Below, piece after piece: positions 12,043 through 21,624 of a stretch of DNA of 64,000 bases (its first letter is position 1; each line of letters begins with the position of its first letter). Source of the stretch: Sphingomonas beigongshangi (GTDB lineage: Bacteria; Pseudomonadota; Alphaproteobacteria; Sphingomonadales; Sphingomonadaceae); the NCBI RefSeq assembly GCF_016820445.1, contig NZ_JADHDT010000008.1, positions 62,001 through 126,000 of the forward strand. The letters run 5' to 3'. The notes below the pieces were generated by a model. It was not told the origin of the DNA. It saw only the letters and a program-made list of their open reading frames with translations, and ran no database searches. Made by a program: the position numbers and the translations under genes.

Positions 12043-12116
12043 TGGAGGCCCGACCGGGAATCGAACCCGGGTGCAAGGATTTGCAGTCCTCTGCGTCACC
12101 ACTCCGCCATCGGGCC
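12043..12116 (-). tRNA. tRNA-Cys (anticodon GCA), CCA encoded
   Basis: A 74-nt cloverleaf including CCA. The acceptor arms GGCCCGA and TCGGGCC pair fully, the discriminator is T (the tRNA-Cys identity base), the anticodon loop is CTGCAAA, and the T-arm is CCGGGTTCGATTCCCGG. The part from position 38 to the 5' end (12080-12116) lies inside a 57-bp direct repeat shared with 21568-21624, so this half is supplied by the integrated element. Confidence 0.97.
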
Positions 12117-12136
12117 TCGACGTCGGGAGAGGCGCG
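12080..12136. repeat. attL: 57-bp direct repeat within and upstream of tRNA-Cys
   Basis: Identical to 21568-21624. On the tRNA strand the identity starts at base 38 of the anticodon loop, covers the whole 5' half and runs 20 bp into the leader. Crossover near the anticodon loop is typical for tRNA-targeting tyrosine recombinases. Identity running toward the 5' end rather than the 3' end is less usual. Confidence 0.93.
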
Positions 12137-12165
12137 CAATTGCGGGCTTTTTGCCGCCGCGTCAA
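12137..12165 (-). promoter_or_regulatory. Element-supplied promoter for tRNA-Cys
   Basis: On the tRNA strand: TTGACG (12165-12160), 17-nt spacer, CAATTG (12142-12137), then about 20 bp to the tRNA 5' end. The -10 is poor but the spacing is right. A matching arrangement stands at 21626-21654 on the far side of the element, where the original promoter now lies. Confidence 0.5.
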
Positions 12166-12221
12166 CGGGCGCGAAACGAAAGTTCGCACTTTTCTGGATC
12201 GAGTTCGCAGTTCGGCAAACC

Positions 12222-13247
12222 TCAGCCGGCATCGCGCGCCTCCATCGCCGCAATAGCGGCTTGCGCGCGAAGCCGCTGGGAAGCGTACTTTAGGGCCATC
12301 TTGAAGGTCTGGTGCCCGAGCACCGCCTCGATCTCCGCAACCGAACACCCGGCCTCGCTCATCCGAGAACCAGCAGCATAGCGGAGGCCATGCAGCGACC
12401 GATCGTCGGGCAAGCCAATGGTCATCTTCACAACCCGGCGCAGTGCCTGTGAAAGGCTGTTGGGTGTGTACGCCCTCCCCTCGATGCTCGTGCAGATTAC
12501 CACACCTTTCGCGCGGCCTCGTAACTGGTCGAGATGACGACGAAGCTCGCTGTGGCAAGCGACGTCTAACAGGGCTCCGGTCTTGCTCTGGCGAACCCGG
12601 ATGACATCCCCCTGGAACTGTTGCCAGGTCATGCGAACGATGTCCTGCCGACGCTGCCCAGTATAGAGCGCGAGCAGCACGGGCGTCTTCACGTGTTCAG
12701 GGCAGCCGGCCAGCATCAGCGCGATTTCCGCGTCGGACCAGACTACGATCTCCTTGGCACCGCCTTTCGGCCGCACTTGTCGAATGCCCTTGGCAGGATT
12801 GAAGCCATCAGGGACCAGACTGTTTTCCTCTGCCCATGAATACAGGCGACTGACCATCTGCTTGATCTTATGCGCCTTGCGCGGATGCTCGGCATGACCG
12901 TCGCGGACGGCCTTGATCATTGCTCTAGTGGTGAACCGATAGCGCCTGGAACCTAATTCCTCCTCGATGAGAAATAGGGTCTTGATGTAATCTGCCTGTG
13001 TCGTGTCCGCGAGGCTCTTGAATTCGACGCTGCGCTGATACTCGCTAATCAAGCCTGCGAAGGTGTCTCGCTCGACTTTTTTGCAAGGCCTGACCGCAAT
13101 CTCCAGTAATTCGGCATAGCGCGCATGAAACTCCGGATCGCCGGGCGAGCCGGGGAGCGGCACGTCACCGACAGTCGGAATATGCCGAAAGCGCCAGTAC
13201 CGTCCGCCCTTAACTGGGTAGGTATACTTGAGATGCTTCCTAGCCAT
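12222..13247 (-). CDS. int: Tyrosine recombinase (integrase) of the tRNA-Cys element
   Basis: A 341-aa phage-type integrase. The N-terminal DNA-binding part begins MARKHLKYTYPVKGGRYWRF; a core-binding helical domain covers about 70-160 and the catalytic domain the remainder. The first Arg is in LYTGQRRQDIVRMTW, the HxxR box in SLHGLRYAAGS, a second His in VLGHQTF and the nucleophile Tyr in MALKYASQ. The ATG at 13247 overlaps the preceding small HTH gene by 8 bp. It sits next to attL and reads toward the tRNA, as expected for the enzyme that integrates and, with the HTH partner, excises the element. Confidence 0.95.
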   Translation of the reverse strand: MARKHLKYTYPVKGGRYWRFRHIPTVGDVPLPGSPGDPEFHARYAELLEIAVRPCKKVERDTFAGLISEYQRSVEFKSLADTTQADYIKTLFLIEEELGSRRYRFTTRAMIKAVRDGHAEHPRKAHKIKQMVSRLYSWAEENSLVPDGFNPAKGIRQVRPKGGAKEIVVWSDAEIALMLAGCPEHVKTPVLLALYTGQRRQDIVRMTWQQFQGDVIRVRQSKTGALLDVACHSELRRHLDQLRGRAKGVVICTSIEGRAYTPNSLSQALRRVVKMTIGLPDDRSLHGLRYAAGSRMSEAGCSVAEIEAVLGHQTFKMALKYASQRLRAQAAIAAMEARDAG

Positions 13248-13512
13248 GGCCGCGAGCCGCCCTGTCGCGGAAGAACGCACGTTCTTCATCCAATGCGCAA
13301 CCTGCGGCTTCATTGGGAGTCAATGGCTGACCAGCGAGACGATCGGCATACCGGTCCAGCGATTTGCGATCGTACAGGACGCGCCGACCGGGCGTCTCAA
13401 TCGGTGCAATACCCCACGACTGAAGGGTGCCGGAGCTGACACCAAGATAGGAGGCCGCCATGCCTGCGCTCATCAATCTCGGCCAATCGGGAAGGTTCAG
13501 CCGTTCAGCCAC
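13240..13512 (-). CDS. Small HTH protein, excisionase/AlpA-like
   Basis: A 90-aa protein with a MerR-like winged helix: RLMSAGMAASYLGVSSGTLQ followed by GRRVLYDRKSLDRYADRL, the layout of excisionases and AlpA-type regulators. I chose GTG at 13512, which overlaps the upstream stop (GTGGCTGA) and has an AAGGGGG site 7 bp ahead. Because it overlaps the integrase start, the two are co-translated. Expected role: recombination directionality factor or regulator of integrase. Confidence 0.75.
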   Translation of the reverse strand: MAERLNLPDWPRLMSAGMAASYLGVSSGTLQSWGIAPIETPGRRVLYDRKSLDRYADRLAGQPLTPNEAAGCALDEERAFFRDRAARGHG

Positions 13513-14140
13513 GGCGCGCCCCCTTTGCCGGCCGCCCATCGTGCTGACACGCCGTCCTTCCGGGCGGAAGGATAGCCGGTTCGCCTGTCGTGGATGGCGG
13601 GTTGCGGTCGACGCCCAACGCCTCGAGAACTCGCGTTTCGATGTCGTTGAGGAAGAGCAGCACTGACGCCGACGGCTTATGAGTCTCTGGATCCTCGATC
13701 GCCTCCGCGATCTGGATTTGATTCGAAGCCGGGAACACCCGCACTGCTCCCGTCGCCGGAAAGAAGGCCATGAACGTAAAGCCGACCTGTTGAGCGTCCC
13801 ATAGTTCGCCAGGCTGTCGCGCGGGCGGCATTCCCGGTATGGGCGGGTCGAATTGCATGCTGCCGACATGAGCAAAGCCCCACATGGCGGCCTTGAAAGC
13901 TTTGCCCGCATCCACCCCGACGCGGATGAGTTCTCCGGCAATCGCGAACCCCAGTGCGTCGCGTAAGCTCCACATGTGCGCCACCCCGTGTGAGGCGGCA
14001 AGTTGCTCTGTCTCACCCAACATCAGGAAGTGCCCGCGCTTGAAATACGCCCGGAAGGTGTTGATCTCGATGCCGGCGGCCGCAGCAACCAAAGACGATT
14101 TGAAGCGGGCTGTATCGTAATCGATCATCGCAAACCCCAT
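13505..14140 (-). CDS. Hypothetical protein of the element, 211 aa
   Basis: Not assigned to a named family. The N-terminus (MIDYDTARFKSSLVAAAAGI then EINTFRAYFKRGHFLMLGET) resembles a MerR/AlpA-type DNA-binding helix pair, followed by a helical segment (SLRDALGFAIAGELIRVGVD) and a beta-rich part. A start at 14128 (MIDYD) is as likely as 14140, since 14140 lies inside a 16-bp perfect inverted repeat. The gene leads the run into the HTH gene and integrase. A role as regulator binding the inverted repeat is an inference from position. Confidence 0.6.
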   Translation of the reverse strand: MGFAMIDYDTARFKSSLVAAAAGIEINTFRAYFKRGHFLMLGETEQLAASHGVAHMWSLRDALGFAIAGELIRVGVDAGKAFKAAMWGFAHVGSMQFDPPIPGMPPARQPGELWDAQQVGFTFMAFFPATGAVRVFPASNQIQIAEAIEDPETHKPSASVLLFLNDIETRVLEALGVDRNPPSTTGEPAILPPGRTACQHDGRPAKGARRG

Positions 14141-14177
14141 TGCACTTGCACCGTCATAGGCCGGTGCAAGTGCAATG
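14138..14177. repeat. Perfect 16-bp inverted repeat at the start of the integrase operon
   Basis: Arms 14138-14153 (CATTGCACTTGCACCG) and 14162-14177 pair without mismatch around an 8-bp spacer. It overlaps the first possible start codon of the 211-aa gene and ends 1 bp before the stop codon of the gene upstream, so it could be a strong operator, a hairpin at the 5' end of the mRNA, or a terminator for the upstream gene. Confidence 0.85.
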
Positions 14178-14903
14178 TCAAATGGGAAGGTTATGCTTGG
14201 AGCCTAGCAGGCGCCGGGCGTCACGCAGCATCGGCTCAACGTAGGCGATCGACCAGGAGGCGGTGCAGCCATCCCCGTCATCGTTAATCAGTCGCTCAAG
14301 CTTCCAAAGCAGGGCTTTCCGATTTGGCGACGGCATTTCGAGCAGTCGATCCTCGCATCGGCAAACATCCGCAATTGCCTCGTCGCATCGATCTGCCGCC
14401 TCTTTCGCTCGCCGGGCATGCTTCTGATCGTTGATCTCTGCGGCCTCGCGGAAAGCCTCAAGCTGATCCAAAGCGGCCAAACGACGAAGTGCCCGCCCCG
14501 GGTCGTGGAGCCAATACCCACGATTAATCTGTCGCTGGGTAGCTTCGCGCGCTGCGCCTATATCAATAGCGCGGTAGGTGCCGATGCGAGGGAGGATGCC
14601 ATTTAGGCCCTCCCAGTCGACCGTGGCCCTGTCCGGTTCACCAGCGGCATAAGCAGCACGAGCGGCAACATCCTGCGCCGTTGCAGCAGCCAAAATCCGT
14701 TCCGCTTTCAGAAGATTTTCAGTTGCAGCGTTCCAGTCAGAATCGCTGGCACCCTGTCTGGGTGTCGATGGCGAGGCGGCGACCAGCATTGGCAAGGTTG
14801 CCAGCATCCCGAGGGCGCCCCGACGTGAGGCGGAAAGGTCATTTGATTTTCTCGGTGACGCAGCCGTCACCGTGGCGCTATGCGCGCCCTCAGCCTGTTG
14901 CAT
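14178..14903 (-). CDS. Hypothetical secreted or membrane-targeted protein of the element, 241 aa
   Basis: Begins MQQAEGAHSATV after a clear GGAGGATAAGTCC ribosome site. Residues 29-50 read ASRRGALGMLATLPMLVAAS, a twin-arginine-like or ordinary export signal with a hydrophobic core. The rest is helical and charged, with EGLNGILPRIGTYRAIDIG and Cys-containing CDEAIADVCRCEDRL. No family recognised. Divergent from the RHH gene, so both probably share the regulated spacer 14904-14986. Confidence 0.55.
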   Translation of the reverse strand: MQQAEGAHSATVTAASPRKSNDLSASRRGALGMLATLPMLVAASPSTPRQGASDSDWNAATENLLKAERILAAATAQDVAARAAYAAGEPDRATVDWEGLNGILPRIGTYRAIDIGAAREATQRQINRGYWLHDPGRALRRLAALDQLEAFREAAEINDQKHARRAKEAADRCDEAIADVCRCEDRLLEMPSPNRKALLWKLERLINDDGDGCTASWSIAYVEPMLRDARRLLGSKHNLPI

Positions 14904-14967
14904 GGACTTATCCTCCAGCGATGGGTCAGAGCCGGTGCGGTCGTTGGTAGCTTCCGCCCGGCTCGAC

Positions 14968-15015
14968 CTTCTGATAACAGAAGCGCATGATCCCTGCAAG
15001 TTCTGATAACAGAAG
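14968..15015. promoter_or_regulatory. Twin palindromic operators around the RHH gene start
   Basis: CTTCTGATAACAGAAG (14968-14983, perfect) and TTCTGATAACAGAA (15001-15014, perfect) lie 32 bp apart centre to centre, about three helical turns. The first ends 3 bp before the RHH ATG; the second lies inside its first codons. This is the expected layout for autorepression by a ribbon-helix-helix protein. Confidence 0.72.
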
Positions 15016-15169
15016 TTCGAAGCGCCCGGGCCAATCAGGCCAGCTAATCGGTGTACGGCTTCAACCCGACCAATTGGCCGACCTCGACGCGTGGATCGAA
15101 CGACAGGATCCACATCCGTCGCGGCCCGAAGCAATTCGGATGATCCTCAAGATGTCTTTAGGTAAATGA
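14987..15169 (+). CDS. Ribbon-helix-helix DNA-binding protein, 60 aa
   Basis: A short protein. Its C-terminal 38 residues (LIGVRLQPDQLADLDAWIER then SRPEAIRMILKMSL) have the beta-strand, helix, helix pattern of CopG/Arc/MetJ-type RHH proteins: alternating V-R-L strand, DxWI helix, and an SRPEAIR second-helix start. Palindromic operators overlap its start. The DUF4145-like gene begins 1 bp after its stop, so it may act like an antitoxin-style autoregulator of that gene. Confidence 0.82.
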   Translation: MIPASSDNRSSKRPGQSGQLIGVRLQPDQLADLDAWIERQDPHPSRPEAIRMILKMSLGK

Positions 15170-15170
15170 C

Positions 15171-15929
15171 ATGCGAGATGTCCCTCGCCGGTTGCTCGTT
15201 TTGGAGAATTCTGTGGCGGAGATGGTCAGCGATTGTCCGAGATGCGCATCGTCCTACATCACGTTTGACGTATATGCAGACGTATTCGTCGGTACCAGCC
15301 ATGGCTGGGTGACCAATCATGAAGTCATTGGAACGTGCAGGCGGTGTCACCGCCCGTCAATATTTCGTTGCCAGCTTAGAGCTATTGAAGACACGGATAA
15401 ATATCGTAGAGATAATTCTCTCCGCTCGTATGACGGTACCCTTAACGATAAGCTGACAATAAAAGGCGTCGTTACTCAGCGCGACGTCGCAAGCGCTCAG
15501 GCTCCTGCATATACGCCAGAAACAATTCAACAGGTTTTCGCCGAGGGCACCGCTTCGGTTGCTGGCGGGTGCTATAATGCCGCTGGGGCGATGTTTCGCC
15601 TCTGCTTGGACATCGTCACGAAGGGCCTTCTTCCTACAAACGCAGATGACGCCACTAAACAGCCGAACAGGCAGCAACGTGAGAAGCTTGCCTATCGGCT
15701 CGAGTGGTTGTTCCAAGAGAATATGCTTCCTCTCGACCTGAAAGAGCTCGCGCGTTGCGTAAGAGAAGACGGGAATGATGGCGCCCATGACGGCACTCTA
15801 GACGAAGTGGATGCAGGTGATCTTCAGGACTTCACAAACGCGCTTTTAGAACGCATCTACACCGAACCTGGAAAAATCTTAGCAGCACAGGCTCGGAGAG
15901 AGGCGCGTCGTAAACCTCCACAGAGTTAG
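15171..15929 (+). CDS. DUF4145-like protein with N-terminal zinc ribbon
   Basis: A 252-aa protein. The N-terminal 65 residues hold two CxxC pairs (CPRCASSYITF and CRRCHRPSIFRC), a zinc ribbon. The C-terminal half (SVAGGCYNAAGAMFRLCLDI then LAYRLEWLFQENMLPLDLKE, and RCVREDGNDGAHDGTLDEVD) matches the DUF4145 pattern, a family often found in mobile elements and beside restriction or defence genes. It uses more A/T-ending and AGA/ATA codons than the host genes around the island, which fits recent transfer. A start at 15222 is possible. No enzymatic motif is visible. Confidence 0.75.
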   Translation: MRDVPRRLLVLENSVAEMVSDCPRCASSYITFDVYADVFVGTSHGWVTNHEVIGTCRRCHRPSIFRCQLRAIEDTDKYRRDNSLRSYDGTLNDKLTIKGVVTQRDVASAQAPAYTPETIQQVFAEGTASVAGGCYNAAGAMFRLCLDIVTKGLLPTNADDATKQPNRQQREKLAYRLEWLFQENMLPLDLKELARCVREDGNDGAHDGTLDEVDAGDLQDFTNALLERIYTEPGKILAAQARREARRKPPQS

Positions 15930-16120
15930 TCAGCCGCGACATGGGGCCTTTTACCTGAAAGGCTCTGAGGCCCTTCGGCGCTCCCTTCCATGAGGGGCGC
16001 AGCCTCTTCAACTGTCCGGACTATCCTTACAAGCGGCATCATCTATCAATTGCATGACCGGCACCGCAGCACCGCAGAGGGTTGCGCTCGGCACACAAGC
16101 ATAGAAGCTTTTGCTTCAAC
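15930..16120. other. Gene-free spacer with two ACTRTCC-type motifs
   Basis: No coding frame is supported in these 191 bp between two convergent genes. It holds ACTGTCCG at 16011-16018 and the related ACTATCCT at 16020-16027, copies of the 8-mer that is iterated at 20980-21420 at the other end of the element. Confidence 0.6.
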
Positions 16121-16783
16121 TTAGCCGAAAATGCCAGCGAATGGATTTGCTTCCAAATCCCAATCTGCAATCGCGAACATGCCACCGACAGGCGGGGATT
16201 TGACTGTGCGAGCGCCGGCAATCACATGCTCAACCTCATGGCCAAGCGCCCGCAGCGCGCGGGCGCAAGCGATGGCGTGACCGCCACCCGTCACCACGTC
16301 ATCAACAAGCACTACAGGTCGCTTTGCGAGGTCTGTCCGTGCTCGGACGTTAGCGAAGAGCGTTTCGGCATCCCTAGGGCCGCCAGAGCGGGCGCTAGGC
16401 AGCTGTATGTGCCAATGGAGGGCATCCACCGAACGCGACGCGCTGCGGGCCGCTATGGCCGCCGCCAGGGCGCGCCCCTTCGGGTCCTGACCGACGCTGA
16501 GACATGACGACGACGGCACAGGCACCAACCATGCCCCATCGGGGTATAGCTGGTTTGCGATGGCCCCGCCCCACTCACCAAAGGCAGCGAATGCGTTGTG
16601 CCGCAGCGGCGTCGATATCTTGAGTTTCCCCGGACCGGTCGCGCGCGGCAACCAACCGTAACCGTTCGCGACCTCTCCCTTAAGCAACTGAACGAACTTG
16701 TGCGCAACGTGCTCGCCGTCTCCCCACGGATAGGCGTTCTCATAGCTGGCATAGCCGCCGTAGACGTGCGCCCAGAGCGTCAT
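16121..16783 (-). CDS. Phosphoribosyltransferase-fold protein paired with DprA
   Basis: A 220-aa protein. The PRPP-binding signature VVLVDDVVTGGGHAIACARA (two acidic residues then a GGG loop) lies near residues 155-175, with the strand LVPVPSSSCLSVGQDPKGRA upstream, like ComF-type and other class I PRTases. The N-terminal zinc finger of ComF is absent. The ATG overlaps the dprA stop by 4 bp (ATGA), so the pair is one unit. In cellular ComF the fold is linked to competence; in an island next to dprA a role in DNA or nucleotide sensing in defence is plausible but unproven. Confidence 0.82.
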   Translation of the reverse strand: MTLWAHVYGGYASYENAYPWGDGEHVAHKFVQLLKGEVANGYGWLPRATGPGKLKISTPLRHNAFAAFGEWGGAIANQLYPDGAWLVPVPSSSCLSVGQDPKGRALAAAIAARSASRSVDALHWHIQLPSARSGGPRDAETLFANVRARTDLAKRPVVLVDDVVTGGGHAIACARALRALGHEVEHVIAGARTVKSPPVGGMFAIADWDLEANPFAGIFG

Positions 16784-17571
16784 TCGCCGTAGATGGTCGC
16801 CAGAAGCTGCGGTGTGCTCTCCAAGATCGTCGTCATCGGCTTGCCGATGAACTTGGCCGGCCAAGTCAACGCCGGATCGTCCTTCACGCTTTTCGCGATC
16901 ACTAGCCAGCGGCCCAGCTTCTGGCATTCCGCCGCTTGGTGCAGCGTGCCGGACGTGTCTGACGCCTCGATGACAACGCTGGCGTCCGAAATCGCTGCCA
17001 TAGTGCGATTCCGTGCTGGAAAGTTGGACGGAAAAACGCGCGCGCCGATCGGAAACTGCGAGATGAGAAGATGATCCCGATAGATCGCCTCCTGTAGCGC
17101 CTTGTTCTTCGCGGGATAGGCTTGGTCAATCGGGGTGCCGATGACGGCCACCACCTTGCCGCCGGCCTCCATCGCTCCGCTGAGGGCCTCAGTGTCGATC
17201 CCCTCGGCGAGGCCAGACACCACCACGACGCCGGCTTGCGCTAACTGGCGGCCGAGCTGGCGTGCGCGACGCCGGCCCATCTCAGTCGCTTTCCGCGCGC
17301 CGATGACCGCTATGCAGCGACCCTCCAGCAAGTGGATGTTGCCCGCATAGAACACGCGCGCAGCGCCAGCCTCGTCTGTGTCCGCAACGGCATTAAGCAT
17401 GCTCATTTGCCGTTCGGCAAAGGTGTTGCGGCCGATGGCCTCTAACAGGCCGGTCAGCGGATATGCGTGAACGTCGCTTGGCGGAACGTAGCGGCCAGAT
17501 CGGCCAGCGCTGGCGCCGGCGGCCGGGACCGATCGCGCCGATCGGCGCTGCCCTCCCGCATCATCCGCCAT
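16780..17571 (-). CDS. dprA: DprA/SMF-family protein
   Basis: About 263 aa with the SMF Rossmann-like core intact: IAVIGARKATEMGRRRARQL, VVSGLAEGIDTEALSGAMEA, VIGTPIDQAYPAKNKALQEA, then FPARNRTMAAISDASVVIEA and DTSGTLHQAAECQKLGR. Cellular DprA binds ssDNA and loads RecA during transformation. This copy lies inside the tRNA-Cys element and is coupled to a PRTase, and it lacks the C-terminal winged helix of many housekeeping DprA proteins. I chose ATG 17571; a GTG at 17589 would add six residues. Likely an element-encoded accessory or anti-phage factor rather than the competence gene. Confidence 0.9.
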   Translation of the reverse strand: MADDAGGQRRSARSVPAAGASAGRSGRYVPPSDVHAYPLTGLLEAIGRNTFAERQMSMLNAVADTDEAGAARVFYAGNIHLLEGRCIAVIGARKATEMGRRRARQLGRQLAQAGVVVVSGLAEGIDTEALSGAMEAGGKVVAVIGTPIDQAYPAKNKALQEAIYRDHLLISQFPIGARVFPSNFPARNRTMAAISDASVVIEASDTSGTLHQAAECQKLGRWLVIAKSVKDDPALTWPAKFIGKPMTTILESTPQLLATIYGE

Positions 17572-17946
17572 GACTCGTCTTTCCAGCACCCACCCACCCT
17601 ACCTATCGGGCGGCCGGTTTCAATACCATCGCCAAGAGGCGGTTGGAGAAGCGGCTAAATGGCTGCGGGCGATGCGGCCTGCATCGCCCGCTTTTGGCCT
17701 GCCAGAGGCCAGCGTGACAGGATGTGGACCGACCATGAAGTCGAGGGCCGGAGCGCGGTCCTGATTGTCACGCCTATCCGCGCTTCGCTTTCAGGAAACT
17801 CGATAGCGTGAGGGGAGCCACGTTCCCGTGGCTCCCCTCTGCGACGTTGTCCGATTGAGCCCCCACAACACCGTAGTGCGCCCCTGAGCATCGGACTTTC
17901 CGTTGTTGGCTGCGCCGCAGCAGCCGCAAGGATAGGGGCAGTCTCG
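17572..17946. other. Gene-free spacer between dprA and capsid genes
   Basis: 375 bp without a convincing gene; short frames here have no ribosome site and no family character. It should hold the promoter of the dprA-PRTase pair and contains a strong hairpin at 17811-17838. Confidence 0.6.
17811..17838 (-). terminator. Hairpin downstream of the capsid gene
   Basis: Perfect 12-bp stem AGGGGAGCCACG with CGTGGCTCCCCT and a TTCC loop, about 110 bp after the capsid stop. No T-run follows on either strand, so its terminator role is inferred from place and stability. Confidence 0.5.
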
Positions 17947-19140
17947 TTACGCGGGCAGGGCCTTGACCACCTTGATGGCCTCGCTGTTCAGTACCGAGCC
18001 GTACACCCGCTTGCGGAAGTACCACTGGATGCGACCCTTGACGGTGTAGGGATCGCGCAGGACGTTCAGCTGCGTCCGATCCCCGATCATGTAACCGCGC
18101 TGCCAGTTGCCGAACGCGAGCGGATAGGCCTGCGATTCAGTCGCCGGCATATGCTCGCACTCCACGACAGGATAGCCCAGCAGGGTGCCGGGCAAGTTCT
18201 CCTGAAGGCTCGGCATGTAGAACGGCTTGCCGGTTGCGTCGGTCATCGTCGCCAGCCGCGCGATCATGTCGGTAGAGGCGAGCCATGCGGTGCCAGGCGC
18301 CTGCCGATAGCCACCCTTCAGCGAGAAGATGACAGCCAGCAGGAACTTCCAATCGATCTCCATTTGGACGCCACGGATAGGCATAGCCACGCTCTGGATC
18401 GTCCCAACCTTGCGATCATCATCGTTCTCATCCGTGATCGTCTGCGCGAGGAAACCCGCCGGCTTGCGGATGCCATCACCGTAGATGAACGCTTTGCTCT
18501 CCTGCTCCGCTATCGAGTCGACCACGTTCTCTTCGATGAATTGCTCGAGGTTGACGATCGCGTCATCGACGAGTTCTTCGGTTGCGCTCGGGAGCGCGTA
18601 AACCGTGCCGCCGGGGGGTGTCATCGCCGCGAGGCTCGGCCCCTTCGTCTCGACACGTTCCTCGTCCTCGCCGACCCAGCCGGACGTCGCACCACCCTTG
18701 TTGATCGGGAAAACCGTCTTGCCCGTTTCGAGACTGACGACGCGCGCCATGCGGCGGATCGGCGACTGCCGCCGCACCATCGCCTCGATCTGCGTGGCGA
18801 TGGCCTCCGGAACGAGGACGCCGCCATCCCCTTCATCGGCTTCGCGCATTGCCGATGTATGGCCCCGCATGATCTTGCCCATGATCTTGCGATCTTCGGC
18901 GCTGATCGACATGCGAGCGCCGTTGCCGGCCCCCAAATCAAGGGTAGCGGCTGGCGCTGCCACCGTGTCGATTTGAATGCGGCCACCCCGGGCAACAGAC
19001 CCGGTGGACCGACTTAGCGCGCTCTGATGCGCCTGCACCAGTTCCTCCAGCGTCGTAACCTGCCCCTGAAAACCTTCCAGCGCCTCGTCCACATTGGCGA
19101 CGTGCTGACGCAGCAGTTCTTCGATATCGGCCATGTTCAC
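17947..19140 (-). CDS. HK97-family phage major capsid protein
   Basis: A 397-aa protein of normal length for the family. The first 90 or so residues (MADIEELLRQHVANVDEALE and onward) form the helical scaffold-like region removed by the prohead protease. The folded coat follows: VPEAIATQIEAMVRRQSPIR, a beta-hinge PLNKGG-like VFPINKGGATSGWVGEDEER, PSATEELVDDAIVNLEQFIE, and a C-terminal YMIGDRTQLNVLRDPYT strand. The GTG start overlaps the protease stop (GTGA). It shows that the element encodes its own shell; no portal or tail genes accompany it. Confidence 0.95.
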   Translation of the reverse strand: MNMADIEELLRQHVANVDEALEGFQGQVTTLEELVQAHQSALSRSTGSVARGGRIQIDTVAAPAATLDLGAGNGARMSISAEDRKIMGKIMRGHTSAMREADEGDGGVLVPEAIATQIEAMVRRQSPIRRMARVVSLETGKTVFPINKGGATSGWVGEDEERVETKGPSLAAMTPPGGTVYALPSATEELVDDAIVNLEQFIEENVVDSIAEQESKAFIYGDGIRKPAGFLAQTITDENDDDRKVGTIQSVAMPIRGVQMEIDWKFLLAVIFSLKGGYRQAPGTAWLASTDMIARLATMTDATGKPFYMPSLQENLPGTLLGYPVVECEHMPATESQAYPLAFGNWQRGYMIGDRTQLNVLRDPYTVKGRIQWYFRKRVYGSVLNSEAIKVVKALPA

Positions 19141-19784
19141 TTATCCTTTTTGAAGCGTGCGAGAGACTGGCTCGCACCGGTGAGGATGGATACCAACGCG
19201 GCATCCGGTTCATCAGTGGTGTTGATTGCGCGCCATGCGGCAGACGCGCCTGCCTTGGCTTTACGGCCCGAAAGTCCAGCTTCGCGCAGAAGTTCTTCCA
19301 GATCGCGGGCACCGCCAATGGAATTTACCCGCAATACTCTCGCGCTAGGCAACGCGGGCACCGAAACAAGGCTGATTTCATACAGATCAGCCTTCTTCAC
19401 TATCGTACCCGGCTTGTCGCGATTGCGGCTTACATCCTCTAAATGGTGGATTGCGCCAGTAGACAGGCCGGCCAGCGACCCCGCTTTCAGATGCGCATAG
19501 GCTTCCCGCCCATCCGCAGTTTCGAGCGTGAGACGGCCTTGGACCTTCAGGCCCGTCGCTATGGGGGTGATTTCCTTCCAAGCACCGACAGGCTTGGTCA
19601 GATCGTGATGCAGCAGCAGGGCCGGCATTGTGCCCCGTGCCTTGTGTTCGGCAAGCGAGGCAGTGAATGCATCGGGAGAGTAATCATACCGATTGCGGTT
19701 CATTCCAGCAGCCGAGGCTATGCCGGTGAATGAGCCGGCCTCATCAAGGCCGCTCAAAACAAACGATTGGTCGTGGATGTGCAT
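19137..19784 (-). CDS. HK97-type prohead protease
   Basis: A 215-aa serine protease that matures the capsid by cleaving the scaffold region. Start MHIHDQSFVLSGLDEAGSFT. Catalytic candidates are His in MPALLLHHDLTKPVG, Ser in LKAGSLAGLSTGAIH and Glu in DLYEISLVSVPALPSARV, in the order of the family. The C-terminal 55 residues are basic and may be the part that binds the prohead interior. It is coupled to the capsid gene by a 4-bp overlap. Confidence 0.92.
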   Translation of the reverse strand: MHIHDQSFVLSGLDEAGSFTGIASAAGMNRNRYDYSPDAFTASLAEHKARGTMPALLLHHDLTKPVGAWKEITPIATGLKVQGRLTLETADGREAYAHLKAGSLAGLSTGAIHHLEDVSRNRDKPGTIVKKADLYEISLVSVPALPSARVLRVNSIGGARDLEELLREAGLSGRKAKAGASAAWRAINTTDEPDAALVSILTGASQSLARFKKDK

Positions 19785-19839
19785 TGCGCGTCTCGACAGC
19801 TGCGCCCCAACGGGGCGGTTCCTAAAGCCGTCGCCTGAC

Positions 19840-19884
19840 GCGCATCTCACGCGGGTGGCGGGGTGCCATCGCGCATCTCACGCG
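19840..19884. repeat. Two direct repeats upstream of the prohead protease gene
   Basis: GCGCATCTCACGCG occurs at 19840-19853 and again at 19871-19884, 31 bp apart, in the 144-bp spacer before the protease start. Spacing of three helical turns suggests a regulator site for the late genes. The spacer is otherwise empty. Confidence 0.6.
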
Positions 19885-19928
19885 ATTAGCGACCCCTCCG
19901 CTAACACTTTCCAGGCGACAGAACAAGA

Positions 19929-20168
19929 TCAATCTTGGATGAGGTTTCGGGCACCCCGGTCGAGCAAATCCATGCGCTCCAAACGACTTGCTTCGTTCCG
20001 AAGGATGCGGGGCAAGGCCTCGGCTGCGCCATAGCGGGTCAGCGTAAATAGGCAGGCCGCTGAAACGCCCGCCAGAACGTCAGCCGGCTGTGTGCCGGCC
20101 GCCTCCAGCGTTCCAATGAGGGTAAGGATCGACGTTCCGACGTCGTTTGCGCTCGGCTCAGGCTTCAT
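19929..20168 (-). CDS. Small hypothetical protein of the late block, 79 aa
   Basis: MKPEPSANDVGTSILTLIGT and onward; helical, with a mildly hydrophobic Ala/Leu-rich centre (VLAGVSAACLFTLTRYGAAE). The ATG overlaps the stop of the HTH gene upstream (ATGA), so it is coupled to it. Position between a packaging-type HTH gene and the protease suggests a structural or packaging accessory; the family is not recognised. Confidence 0.55.
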   Translation of the reverse strand: MKPEPSANDVGTSILTLIGTLEAAGTQPADVLAGVSAACLFTLTRYGAAEALPRILRNEASRLERMDLLDRGARNLIQD

Positions 20169-20374
20169 TTCGTTGGGTCCTTCGGCAAGGGGGCAAATGG
20201 CAAGTACGGCTGTTGCTGTGCTGAGCCGGGCCTTTTTCGTCGGCGATCAATCCAGTGTTCTCGGATGAATCGCTCAGCCGCATCGAGATCAATGATATAC
20301 GATCGTCCCGAATGGCCTCTGGTTTCGATGGGGAAGTCGGGCCGCGCTGAGATGAAGCGCTGCAAGGTTGGCAA
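20165..20374 (-). CDS. Packaging/AlpA-type HTH protein, probable 5' frame break
   Basis: The frame from TTG at 20374 gives 69 aa: LPTLQRFISARPDFPIETRG then HSGRSYIIDLDAAERFIREH, the wing and second half of a Nu1/AlpA-like HTH as in small terminase or DNA-packaging proteins. The missing first helix is found in another frame just upstream (from GTG 20466: GQRFGSLRELGAR). Joining the two near 20385-20395 by one extra base gives a complete HTH. So the gene is either frameshifted, affected by a sequence error, or starts unusually at TTG. Confidence 0.5.
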   Translation of the reverse strand: MPTLQRFISARPDFPIETRGHSGRSYIIDLDAAERFIREHWIDRRRKRPGSAQQQPYLPFAPLPKDPTK

Positions 20375-20475
20375 GCTGGCATATCTGGACGCGCGCCGAG
20401 CTCGCGCAGCGAGCCAAACCTCTGACCGGGCACTGTGGATTTCGACTGCTCAAGGGAAACCGTCACGGGAGGCTC

Positions 20476-20958
20476 TTACAAAAAACTTTCCCGGCGAATT
20501 TCGCGCCGAGATTTTCTCTGTTGCGATCCGGTCCCGGCGTTGACGGCCTCAGACTTTTGACCACCCCCCGGTGCAGGCCTGATCATCCCACCTGGGCTTC
20601 CAGCGCGCACGGCAGTGCTCTCAAGCGCCTGCATCACGATCGCCAGATGGGCCTTTGCCAATTCGATATGTCGGCGGAGGATCGGTCGAGGCGCCCCATC
20701 GACTACGTCGGCAAACGCCACACCATCGTAGAAGCTGCCATCGTTTCGGACGTAGCGATGGCCAAGCCGGGACATTTCACGCTTCAAGGCCGGGTAACTC
20801 AACGCGGGCAACCCTAAGGGCTCCGCCCACGCCGCATAGACGGCGCGCAAGTCCTTAGTTGCGATTCGAGCCCCAGGATCAGTCCGCAGCTGACCACTGC
20901 AGAACGTCGTGAAGTTATCCCGCGCGGGGCTGTGAGCAAGAGGGTCAACCATAGCCAT
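20476..20958 (-). CDS. Winged-helix protein like the C-terminal domain of phage/plasmid primases
   Basis: A 160-aa protein. Residues 20-85 (FCSGQLRTDPGARIATKDLR then AVYAAWAEPLGLPALSYPAL and YVRNDGSFYDGVAF) resemble the DNA-binding winged helix found after P4/D5-type primase-helicases. The remaining tail is basic and Gly/Pro-rich. The catalytic primase and helicase parts are not present anywhere in the element. It starts 21 bp from a tandem pair of ACTATCCG motifs, so it may be an origin- or operator-binding protein. The family call is by resemblance only. Confidence 0.55.
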   Translation of the reverse strand: MAMVDPLAHSPARDNFTTFCSGQLRTDPGARIATKDLRAVYAAWAEPLGLPALSYPALKREMSRLGHRYVRNDGSFYDGVAFADVVDGAPRPILRRHIELAKAHLAIVMQALESTAVRAGSPGGMIRPAPGGGQKSEAVNAGTGSQQRKSRREIRRESFL

Positions 20959-20979
20959 CTTTTATCTTCTCTTATGGTA

Positions 20980-21420
20980 CGGATAGTACGGATAGTATGT
21001 GCATATCGCACATGCACACGCACACATATGGAAAGGTCTTTGAACGAACTATCCGAACCCTCCGGACTGTCCGTAACTCAAGAATTTCCGCGGCTCTCGA
21101 CAACGGACAGTCAACGGACGGCCGGATAGTTCGCGCGGCGCCGGAGAAGGCTGAAGCCCAATTATAGGTCCAAGATTGGACCTTTCGTGCTTGTTCAAGG
21201 CCGAAAGTACGGAGGGTTGAACCAAACTATCCGTAGACTGTCCGGTCGAGGTGACCTTACCGCGCGCTGCCTCAGCGACCGCAACGCCCAGCGGACAAAC
21301 TGAGACATAGGTCGACGAACATTTGCGTGGGCAGCCGCCGCGTATTCCTAGCGACGGTGCACTCTCGCGGTCGCTTCTAATGGTGCAGCGGGTAGCTGTC
21401 GACTGTCCGGAAACTGTCCG
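20980..21420. repeat. Iteron-like array: ten copies of ACTRTCCG in a non-coding tract
   Basis: The 8-mer ACTATCCG or ACTGTCCG occurs, on either strand, at 20980, 20989, 21048, 21066, 21104, 21123, 21226, 21237, 21402 and 21413 (left ends), often in pairs 9, 11, 18 or 19 bp apart. The tract (20959-21567) holds no supported gene and also has an AT-rich inverted repeat (20997-21013) and a small hairpin (21166-21183). Chance expectation for this motif in 441 bp is far below one. Candidate replication origin, packaging site or multi-operator control region of the element. Confidence 0.85.
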
Positions 21421-21567
21421 TATTGCCGATGATCTCGACAGGCAGGCCGACGGTAAGCGCGCGCCTGGCCGCGGTTCGCACTGACCGGCTAAGTCATTGA
21501 TTTTCAGTGACTGGTGGGAGGCTGGAAAACTGCGAACAACCGCTGAATTCTGGCGATTCGGTGGGGC

Positions 21568-21624
21568 TTTGCAGTCCTCTGCGTCACCACTCCGCCATCG
21601 GGCCTCGACGTCGGGAGAGGCGCG
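21568..21624. repeat. attR: 57-bp direct repeat holding the 5' half of a displaced tRNA-Cys
   Basis: Identical to 12080-12136. Bases 21568-21604 are the tRNA-Cys 5' half up to anticodon-loop base 38, and the rest is the original leader. Before integration the intact tRNA-Cys followed mutT directly. Confidence 0.93.

What the first reader, a model, noticed from the sequence alone, without database searches (positions are those of the whole stretch)
12080..21624. A 9.5-kb capsid-encoding satellite-like element integrated in tRNA-Cys
Perfect 57-bp direct repeats, an adjacent tyrosine integrase and excisionase-like gene delimit the element exactly. It encodes an HK97 capsid and its prohead protease, a packaging-type HTH and a primase-associated winged helix, but no portal, large terminase, tail, lysis or full replication genes. 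That gene set fits a phage satellite that makes its own shell and borrows the rest (capsid-forming PICI logic), in a sphingomonad host. A decayed prophage is the alternative.
Basis: partly seen in the sequence, partly recalled or inferred. Interest (0 to 1): 0.88.

Follow-up and report, generated by a model that had tools for sequence, protein, structure and literature searches.

The report
Capsid-carrying phage satellite in tRNA-Cys
A 9.5-kb mobile DNA element in a Sphingomonas-type bacterium carries genes for a virus shell and for anti-virus defence, but not the virus's DNA-packaging motor or tail, so it probably travels as a parasite of full viruses; three close sisters at the same site in other genomes suggest a lineage and not a random wreck.

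Summary
A 9,488-bp element lies between exact 57-bp repeats (12080-12136 / 21568-21624) in tRNA-Cys; genome G017 has the empty site. It encodes integrase, excisionase-like protein, HK97 capsid, S78 prohead protease and a primase-tail winged-helix protein beside ten clustered iterons. No portal or large terminase was found, and no unassigned gene is large enough to be one.

Three sister elements (10.0-10.9 kb) at the same tRNA-Cys share integrase, excisionase-like and winged-helix genes, encode a fused protease-capsid protein, and lack the portal that 15 of the 18 fetched loci with this fused gene carry. A second group (seven genomic elements at other tRNAs, one circular viral contig) repeats the pattern with another capsid clade.

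Best reading: a satellite that makes its own head shell and borrows portal, motor and tail. It fails the cf-PICI definition; SaPIbov5 (Ccm) and PmCI172 are the nearest precedents. New are the own protease and, in relatives, tape measure and neck genes.

Caveats: one HTH gene looks frameshifted; this capsid is an orphan; prophages with related integrase, head and ShosTA genes exist in the genus; no helper or mobilisation is shown.

The parts
12043..12116 (-). tRNA-Cys(gca), integration target; its 5' half is inside the repeat
   Evidence: ARAGORN
12080..12136 (.). attL, exact 57-bp direct repeat
12222..13313 (-). tyrosine integrase, 363 aa
   Evidence: PF00589 6.8e-15; relatives at E <= 1e-40 in 20 other genomes of 295
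13240..13527 (-). HTH_17 excisionase-like protein, 95 aa
   Evidence: PF12728 1.6e-4, phrog_66/25900; homologues beside the integrase in the fetched stretches
13505..14140 (-). MerR-like HTH regulator, 211 aa
   Evidence: phmmer 2.5e-14 to L221 and 4.6e-12 to L168; the L168 protein hits MerR_1 1.8e-4
14178..14906 (-). protein with a twin-arginine-like N-terminus (motif read by eye), about 242 aa, unknown role
   Evidence: homologue in sister L342, 1.5e-7; no PHROG family, Pfam only DMP19 at E 0.093
14987..15169 (+). ribbon-helix-helix regulator, 60 aa
   Evidence: phrog_4738 0.0085; homologues in L156 3.8e-11, L341 1.5e-9, L342 1.2e-12
15171..15929 (+). DUF4145 protein, possible defence gene
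   Evidence: PF13643 1.7e-6; PADLOC PD-T7-4 1.6e-4; phrog_1305 1.4e-31
16121..16924 (-). ShosT-like phosphoribosyltransferase
   Evidence: PADLOC ShosT 1.7e-9
16780..17589 (-). ShosA-like DprA-family protein (start uncertain; 16780-17559 was searched)
   Evidence: PADLOC ShosA 2e-64, profile positions 101-283 of 303; PF02481 2.1e-50
17947..19140 (-). HK97-fold major capsid protein, 397 aa
   Evidence: PF05065 2e-68; model pLDDT 83.6; best PDB matches GTA capsid 6tb9 and cf-PICI EcCI2 capsid 9gyi
19137..19850 (-). S78 prohead protease (start uncertain; 19137-19790 was searched)
   Evidence: PF04586 2.9e-16, phrog_80 1.4e-27
19929..20168 (-). 79-aa protein, unknown; small genes at a similar place in sisters
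   Evidence: no family; no significant match to sister genes, weak alignment only
20165..20466 (-). HTH gene split over two frames: apparent frameshift
   Evidence: three-frame translation; one-frame homologues in L354 1.1e-14 and L341 1.3e-5
20476..20958 (-). winged-helix protein like the C-terminus of phage primases, putative replication initiator, 160 aa
   Evidence: phrog_1156 0.002; homologues in L341, L342, L351, E 1.5e-8 to 2.5e-8
20980..21420 (.). ten ACTRTCCG iterons, putative replication origin
21568..21624 (.). attR, second copy of the 57-bp repeat

Best explanation
This is an integrated phage satellite. Shown by sequence: it is bounded by att repeats in tRNA-Cys; the same site is empty in a relative; it carries integrase, excisionase-like, regulatory, capsid, prohead-protease, winged-helix and defence-type genes; portal, large terminase, HNH and tail genes were not found in it. 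Inferred: on infection or induction of a helper tailed phage it excises, the winged-helix protein opens replication at the iterons (with helper or host replication proteins), and its capsid protein, matured by its own protease, builds a shell sized for about 10 kb around the helper's portal. The helper's terminase and tail complete the particle. The ShosTA-like pair and the DUF4145 gene are cargo against competing phages. The confidence given is for a satellite that supplies capsid protein and borrows portal, motor and tail; whether the shell is all its own (my preference) or mixed with helper capsid (rival 2) is a question inside it.
For: Exact att repeats and target tRNA. Empty site in G017 (L233): left flank 318-1537, att 1538-1590 and right flank from 1645 lie side by side without an insertion.

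Three sisters at the same tRNA-Cys with exact repeats of 58, 38 and 71 bp: L341 10,882 bp, L342 10,038 bp, L351 10,102 bp. They share integrase (67, 66, 55%), excisionase-like and winged-helix genes (RHH in L341 and L342 only), and encode a fused protease-capsid protein (phrog_4523, 2.6e-172 to 7.9e-179), TMP in 2 of 3, Neck1 in 2 of 3. Portal and TerL HMMs find nothing. Of 18 fetched loci with the fused gene, 15 have a lambda-type portal and these 3 do not; no unassigned gene over 330 aa is left in them.

L165, a piece of a 48.6-kb viral contig with a 61%-identical integrase, has 40 nt of tRNA-Cys (97.5%) near that integrase.

Second group: 7 of 8 genomes matched at E <= 1e-95 by the L062 capsid among 295 (the query's own included) hold tRNA-adjacent elements without portal or PF03354 TerL; direct repeats found for 6 of 7; TerS in 5 of 7. 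L077, an 11.4-kb contig with a 127-bp terminal repeat, has integrase (38% to ours), HNH, TerS, capsid and TMP, no portal or TerL. Capsids of this group fall in one clade (SH-aLRT 99, quick tree).

Precedent: SaPIbov5 Ccm redirects head size (PMC8569155, passages).
Against: No helper, excision, particle or packaging signal is shown. No TerS or other packaging gene is identifiable here. The HTH gene at 20165-20466 looks frameshifted, so this copy may be partly decayed, or the assembly wrong. This capsid has no close relative: only itself at E <= 1e-68 in 385 class genomes; at E <= 1e-60 in 295 genus genomes two others, one in a GTA-type cluster and one in a prophage-type region; it is a long branch outside the satellite capsid clade.

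Fuller elements share its genes: integrase relatives occur in L168, L221, L228 and L181, which have portal and TerL, with the regulator in L168 and L221 and the RHH in L181. Prophage-like L355 and L357 (same genus) have an integrase of 49%, a fused head gene of 32-34% to the sisters', and a portal; L357 also has ShosT (60%) and a ShosA piece (77%) beside its integrase. Loss of portal and motor from such an ancestor is therefore possible.
Confidence: 0.66

Rival explanations
1. Remnant of a complete prophage or of a full cf-PICI that lost portal, terminase and connectors by deletion and is no longer mobile.
For: Apparent frameshift in the HTH gene. Integrase and regulator relatives occur in elements with portal and TerL. 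Prophage-like L355 and L357 have related integrase, head and (L357) ShosTA genes and a portal. Integrase relatives beside tRNA-Cys include phage-like regions.
Against: Both att copies are exact. Integrase, capsid and protease are open frames; the capsid match spans 279 of 280 profile positions. No portal or TerL match in open stretches of 40 aa or more. Three sisters of like size lack the same genes, and a second group with its own capsid clade does too, which makes repeated chance deletion less likely.
Confidence: 0.2
2. Ccm-type variant of the satellite reading: the capsid protein does not build a shell alone but mixes with the helper's capsid protein (for example as pentamers) to shrink helper heads. 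Not exclusive with the best explanation's wider claim.
For: SaPIbov5 Ccm forms the pentamers of small shells (PMC8569155, passages). PmCI172 encodes a capsid homologue and small heads are seen (PMC6092414 and PMC6893505, passages).
Against: [quoted passage not shown] here the satellite brings its own, and the sisters have a fused protease-capsid gene, which suits a separate shell. The capsid is not close to the strain's own prophage capsid (29-30% identity), though the true helper is unknown.
Confidence: 0.28
3. The capsid and protease work as interference: they poison or divert helper assembly to protect the host, and packaging of the element is secondary or absent.
For: The element carries a ShosTA-like pair and a DUF4145 gene. 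Sisters and second-group elements carry single tape measure or neck proteins, which could act as dominant-negative parts; I did not scan each of their ORFs for other tail genes.
Against: Integrase and excisionase-like genes are kept across the sisters, TerS is present in 5 of 7 of the second group, and one relative is a circular viral contig: signs of transfer.
Confidence: 0.12
4. On origin only: the capsid was captured from a gene transfer agent.
For: Best fold match is the GTA capsid 6tb9; the nearest sequences in the fetched loci, 42-43% identical, lie in clusters with GTA-type genes ('GTA' rests on my recognition of the own-genome cluster and on the annotation of its relative L056).
Against: The tree gives no join to GTA capsids; mobile-element context with att sites and integrase.
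Confidence: 0.05

Closest known systems
Capsid-forming PICI (cf-PICI)
   Same: Integrase, own capsid protein and prohead protease; capsid fold match to EcCI2 9gyi.
   Different: cf-PICIs carry portal, connectors, TerS, TerL and HNH and need only tails (PMC10690885, passages) and average 14 kb (PMC10803314, passages); here portal, TerL and HNH were not found and the size is 9.5 kb.
SaPIbov5 (Ccm), a cos-type SaPI
   Same: Satellite with a capsid homologue, using helper particle parts (PMC8569155 and PMC6893505, passages).
   Different: [quoted passage not shown] this element has one, and relatives have fused protease-capsid, tape measure or neck genes. Different bacterial phylum (recalled).
PmCI172, a Pasteurella PICI
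   Same: Encodes a capsid homologue and small heads are seen (PMC6092414 and PMC6893505, passages).
   Different: Gammaproteobacterial; no sequence comparison was made here.
DprA plus PRTase defence system of a P2-like phage hotspot
   Same: DprA-like plus phosphoribosyltransferase pair carried by a phage element (PMC9122126, passages).
   Different: Different carrier; activity of this pair is untested.

Membership tests
cf-PICI | own major capsid protein | tested here: met
   PF05065 2e-68
cf-PICI | own head maturation protease | tested here: met
   PF04586 2.9e-16
cf-PICI | portal protein | tested here: not met
   no unassigned ORF of that size
cf-PICI | large terminase | tested here: not met
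cf-PICI | small terminase | tested here: inconclusive
   HTH gene without family support and apparently frameshifted
cf-PICI | HNH endonuclease | tested here: not met
   no HNH match among the element's proteins scanned
cf-PICI | head-tail connectors | tested here: not met
   no connector match among the element's proteins scanned; Neck1 in sisters L342 and L351
PICI | specific attachment site with integrase and excision gene | tested here: met
   excision gene by similarity only
PICI | conserved replication origin beside the initiator gene | tested here: inconclusive
   iterons upstream of the winged-helix gene and another array in L341; none so dense in L342 or L351; no initiator function shown
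PICI | phage-dependent induction and packaging into particles | not testable with these tools
   needs experiments
PICI | helper interference genes | not tested
   no cpm, ppi or rpp homologue was looked for by name
Ccm-type PICI (SaPIbov5) | capsid homologue without own portal or TerL | tested here: met
Ccm-type PICI (SaPIbov5) | helper cos site and homology of the capsid protein to its helper's | not tested
   helper unknown
ShosTA defence system | ShosT PRTase next to ShosA DprA-like protein | tested here: met
   PADLOC 1.7e-9 and 2e-64, adjacent genes

The most novel reading that the evidence does not exclude
A distinct class of alphaproteobacterial phage satellites that bring the head shell and its maturation protease, and often the tape measure and a neck protein, but leave portal, packaging motor and tail tube to the helper. 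They would lie between classical PICIs (no shell) and cf-PICIs (everything but the tail), and would show that portal and capsid can come from different genomes and still assemble.
Probability: 0.5. Interest if true: 0.75.

Novelty: new variant of a known kind. Interest (0 to 1): 0.62.

Why it matters
If these elements are mobilised, capsid and portal from different genomes must fit together, which makes the rules of capsid-portal matching and head-size choice testable in natural pairs. Relatives that also carry a tape measure would test whether tail length can be re-set by a parasite. ShosTA-like, DRT and ApeA-like genes lie next to the shell genes of this element, of L063/L154 and of L062, so such satellites may be a moving store of phage defence in sphingomonads.

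Tried and rejected
This element's capsid and 160-aa protein found no relatives in viral contigs. The 160-aa protein found only its own genome in 296 order genomes, although homologues of 32-35% identity were later seen in three sisters, so that negative was weak. The genome-contig scan gave one distant capsid. The 125 capsid places listed were compared with the portal places listed (a list cut at its weak end): 21 had no portal within 12 kb. One is this element; 14 stretches were read: 2 are new satellites (L062, L063), L065/L066 prophage pieces, the other 10 GTA-type, L070 with few such genes; 6 were not fetched widely. Of the 21 other integrase places, 19 were fetched and read; 3 of these stretches are under 5 kb, so further sisters may be missed. 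L155's second att copy was not found.

My portal and TerL HMMs are of the HK97/GTA kind and miss the lambda-type portal and the 704-aa protein of L355/L357, which I take for a large terminase from recall (no PDB match; the portal matches 8gtd at 6.9e-12). I therefore searched for both directly: absent from this element, the three sisters, the seven second-group elements, L076 and L077.

The structure of the 160-aa protein was too poor to use (pLDDT 45.1). A Nu1-like small terminase reading of the HTH gene found no support. Protease relatives in viral contigs (L160-L164) all carry portal and TerL. The flank test alone was ambiguous, because the element's own sequence beside attL resembles the right flank; one search settled it with G017.
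Full report
Observation. The element lies between exact 57-bp repeats, 12080-12136 and 21568-21624, 9,488 bp apart. The left repeat holds the 5' half of tRNA-Cys(gca) (12043-12116, minus strand) up to the anticodon loop. GC is 60.3% in the element and 68.0% in the rest of the window. In relative genome G017 the left flank (76% identity over 1,224 bp), a 53-bp att and the right flank (74% over 1,503 bp) lie side by side without an insertion (L233), so the element is an insertion.

Gene content. Reading from attR to attL, mostly on the minus strand: iterons, a 160-aa winged-helix protein, an HTH gene, a 79-aa protein, S78 protease, HK97 capsid protein, ShosA-like, ShosT-like, then (plus strand) DUF4145 and RHH, then a protein with a twin-arginine-like start (my reading by eye), a MerR-like regulator, an excisionase-like protein and the integrase. 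The largest gene not tied to a family is about 240 aa, so a portal or TerL has no room. The capsid model is confident (pLDDT 83.6, pTM 0.75) and matches the GTA capsid 6tb9 (E 1.9e-24) and the cf-PICI EcCI2 capsid 9gyi (E 1.3e-20). ACTRTCCG occurs 13 times in the window, 10 of them at 20980-21420; 500 shuffles of that region gave a mean of 0.03 and a maximum of 2.

The broken gene. Translation of 20165-20466 shows the N-terminal part of the HTH protein in one frame and the rest in another. Homologues in L354 (1.1e-14) and L341 (1.3e-5) run through both parts in one frame; the N-terminal likeness is my reading of the sequences printed. Either this copy has lost the gene, the assembly is wrong, or the frame change is used; I cannot tell. 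It counts against full activity of this copy.

Sisters at tRNA-Cys. The integrase has relatives at E <= 1e-40 in 21 of 295 genus genomes, own included. I fetched 19 of the 21 other places. Three are close sisters with both att copies in the stretch: L341 (10,882 bp between copies), L342 (10,038 bp), L351 (10,102 bp). They share integrase (67, 66 and 55% identity), excisionase-like and winged-helix genes; RHH is found in L341 and L342, the twin-arginine-like protein in L342, the HTH gene in L341. Shared genes stand in the same order as here. Each encodes a 666-820-aa fused protease-capsid protein (phrog_4523, E 2.6e-172 to 7.9e-179); L341 and L351 add a tape measure protein, L342 and L351 a Neck1 protein. 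L341 has its own iteron array with another motif at the same place; L342 and L351 show no array of that density. L354 (17.2 kb, same site) shares integrase, excisionase-like, regulator, RHH, DUF4145 and HTH genes, and has a full primase.

Is the portal really absent in the sisters? HK97-type HMMs find none. The fused head gene occurs in 18 fetched loci; 15 of them (13 viral contigs brought in by the integrase, and the prophage-like L355 and L357) carry a lambda-type portal, and the three sisters do not (the portal matches PDB 8gtd, 6.9e-12). Apart from integrase, tape measure and head gene, the largest ORFs called in the sisters are 328 aa (L342) and 269 aa (L351). I did not scan every sister ORF for tail genes.

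A second group. Two capsid-carrying elements without portal (L062, L063) were found through capsids that lack a nearby portal in 150 relatives. A capsid search with L062 then gave 8 of 295 genomes, its own included: 7 are elements beside tRNA-Ser (3), tRNA-Lys (2), tRNA-Arg and tRNA-Gln, of 10.1-11.2 kb where both repeats were found (6 of 7); the eighth (G068) lies in a prophage piece. Pfam searches place no PF04860 portal and no PF03354 TerL in them; local HMMs and the second portal/TerL type agree. TerS was found in 5 of 7. Cargo includes DRT genes in L063 and L154 and an ApeA-like gene in L062; L155 and L157 carry tape measure proteins; L156 a Neck1 protein. In a quick tree of 122 capsids these seven, with L074, L076 and L077, fall in a clade of 12 (SH-aLRT 99) that also holds L075, which has portal and TerL, and L057, not examined. 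L077 is an 11.4-kb viral contig with a 127-bp terminal repeat, so probably a circle, with integrase (38% to ours), HNH, TerS, capsid and tape measure, no portal or TerL. This element's own capsid stands apart on a long branch.

Links to fuller elements. Integrase relatives occur in compact elements that do carry portal and TerL (L168, L221, L228, L181), with the regulator in two and the RHH in one of them. L355 and L357 are prophage-like, with integrase (49%), fused head gene (32-34% to the sisters') and portal; L357 has ShosT (60%) and a ShosA piece cut by the end of the stretch (77%) beside its integrase. These may be relatives of the ancestor, of the helper, or both. L165, a piece of a 48.6-kb viral contig with a 61%-identical integrase, holds 40 nt of tRNA-Cys at 97.5% identity near that gene. 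The strain's own genome has a prophage with TerL, portal and capsid on contig C21 and a GTA-type cluster on C17, so possible helpers exist; none is shown to help.

Interpretation. I take it as a satellite whose capsid and protease make a small shell on a helper portal, with helper motor and tail. The sequence facts are shown; excision, shell formation, helper use and the role of the iterons are inferred. A mixed shell as in SaPIbov5, where Ccm forms the pentamers (PMC8569155, passages), is the main mechanistic rival; the satellite's own protease speaks for a separate shell, since none has been identified in SaPIbov5 (same passages). Decay of a fuller element is the main historical rival and cannot be excluded for this copy.

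Relation to known kinds. It is not a cf-PICI by definition (PMC10690885, passages). It works like a PICI with a capsid homologue (SaPIbov5, PmCI172). In the listings of ten paper searches I saw no report of such satellites in sphingomonads or of satellites with capsid plus tape measure; the original cf-PICI and SatelliteFinder papers were not held, so this is no proof that they are unlisted.

Noticed in passing
window 16011-16026: An ACTGTCCG motif beside a near copy lies alone between the convergent DUF4145 and ShosT genes, far from the main iteron cluster.
   Followed up: no
L155:6837-9134 and L157:6159-8585: Tape measure genes in tRNA-Lys satellites that carry a capsid but no portal found; also in L077, L341 and L351.
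   Followed up: partly
L063:7777-9438 and L154:10968-12599: DRT (Drt6/Drt4-type) reverse transcriptase genes directly beyond the capsid gene of two tRNA-Ser satellites.
   Followed up: partly
L357:18938-19812: A ShosT gene (60% to ours) and a ShosA piece (77%) on the far side of the integrase of a prophage-like region in another genome of the genus.
   Followed up: partly
L074:44-11006: A satellite-like stretch (capsid, tape measure, TerS, integrase) followed directly by genes like prophage head-tail connectors; perhaps a satellite inside or beside a prophage, or a chimeric contig.
   Followed up: no
L349:18945-19185: Two copies of the tRNA-Cys att sequence about 160 bp apart (start to start) beside an integrase, a possible tandem att left by an excision.
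   Followed up: no
window 14178-14906; L077:9754-10761; L076:7119-7787; L341:3017-3559; L342:2966-3406: Proteins with a twin-arginine-like N-terminus recur in these satellites; role unknown (motif read by eye; only L342 matches ours by sequence).
   Followed up: partly
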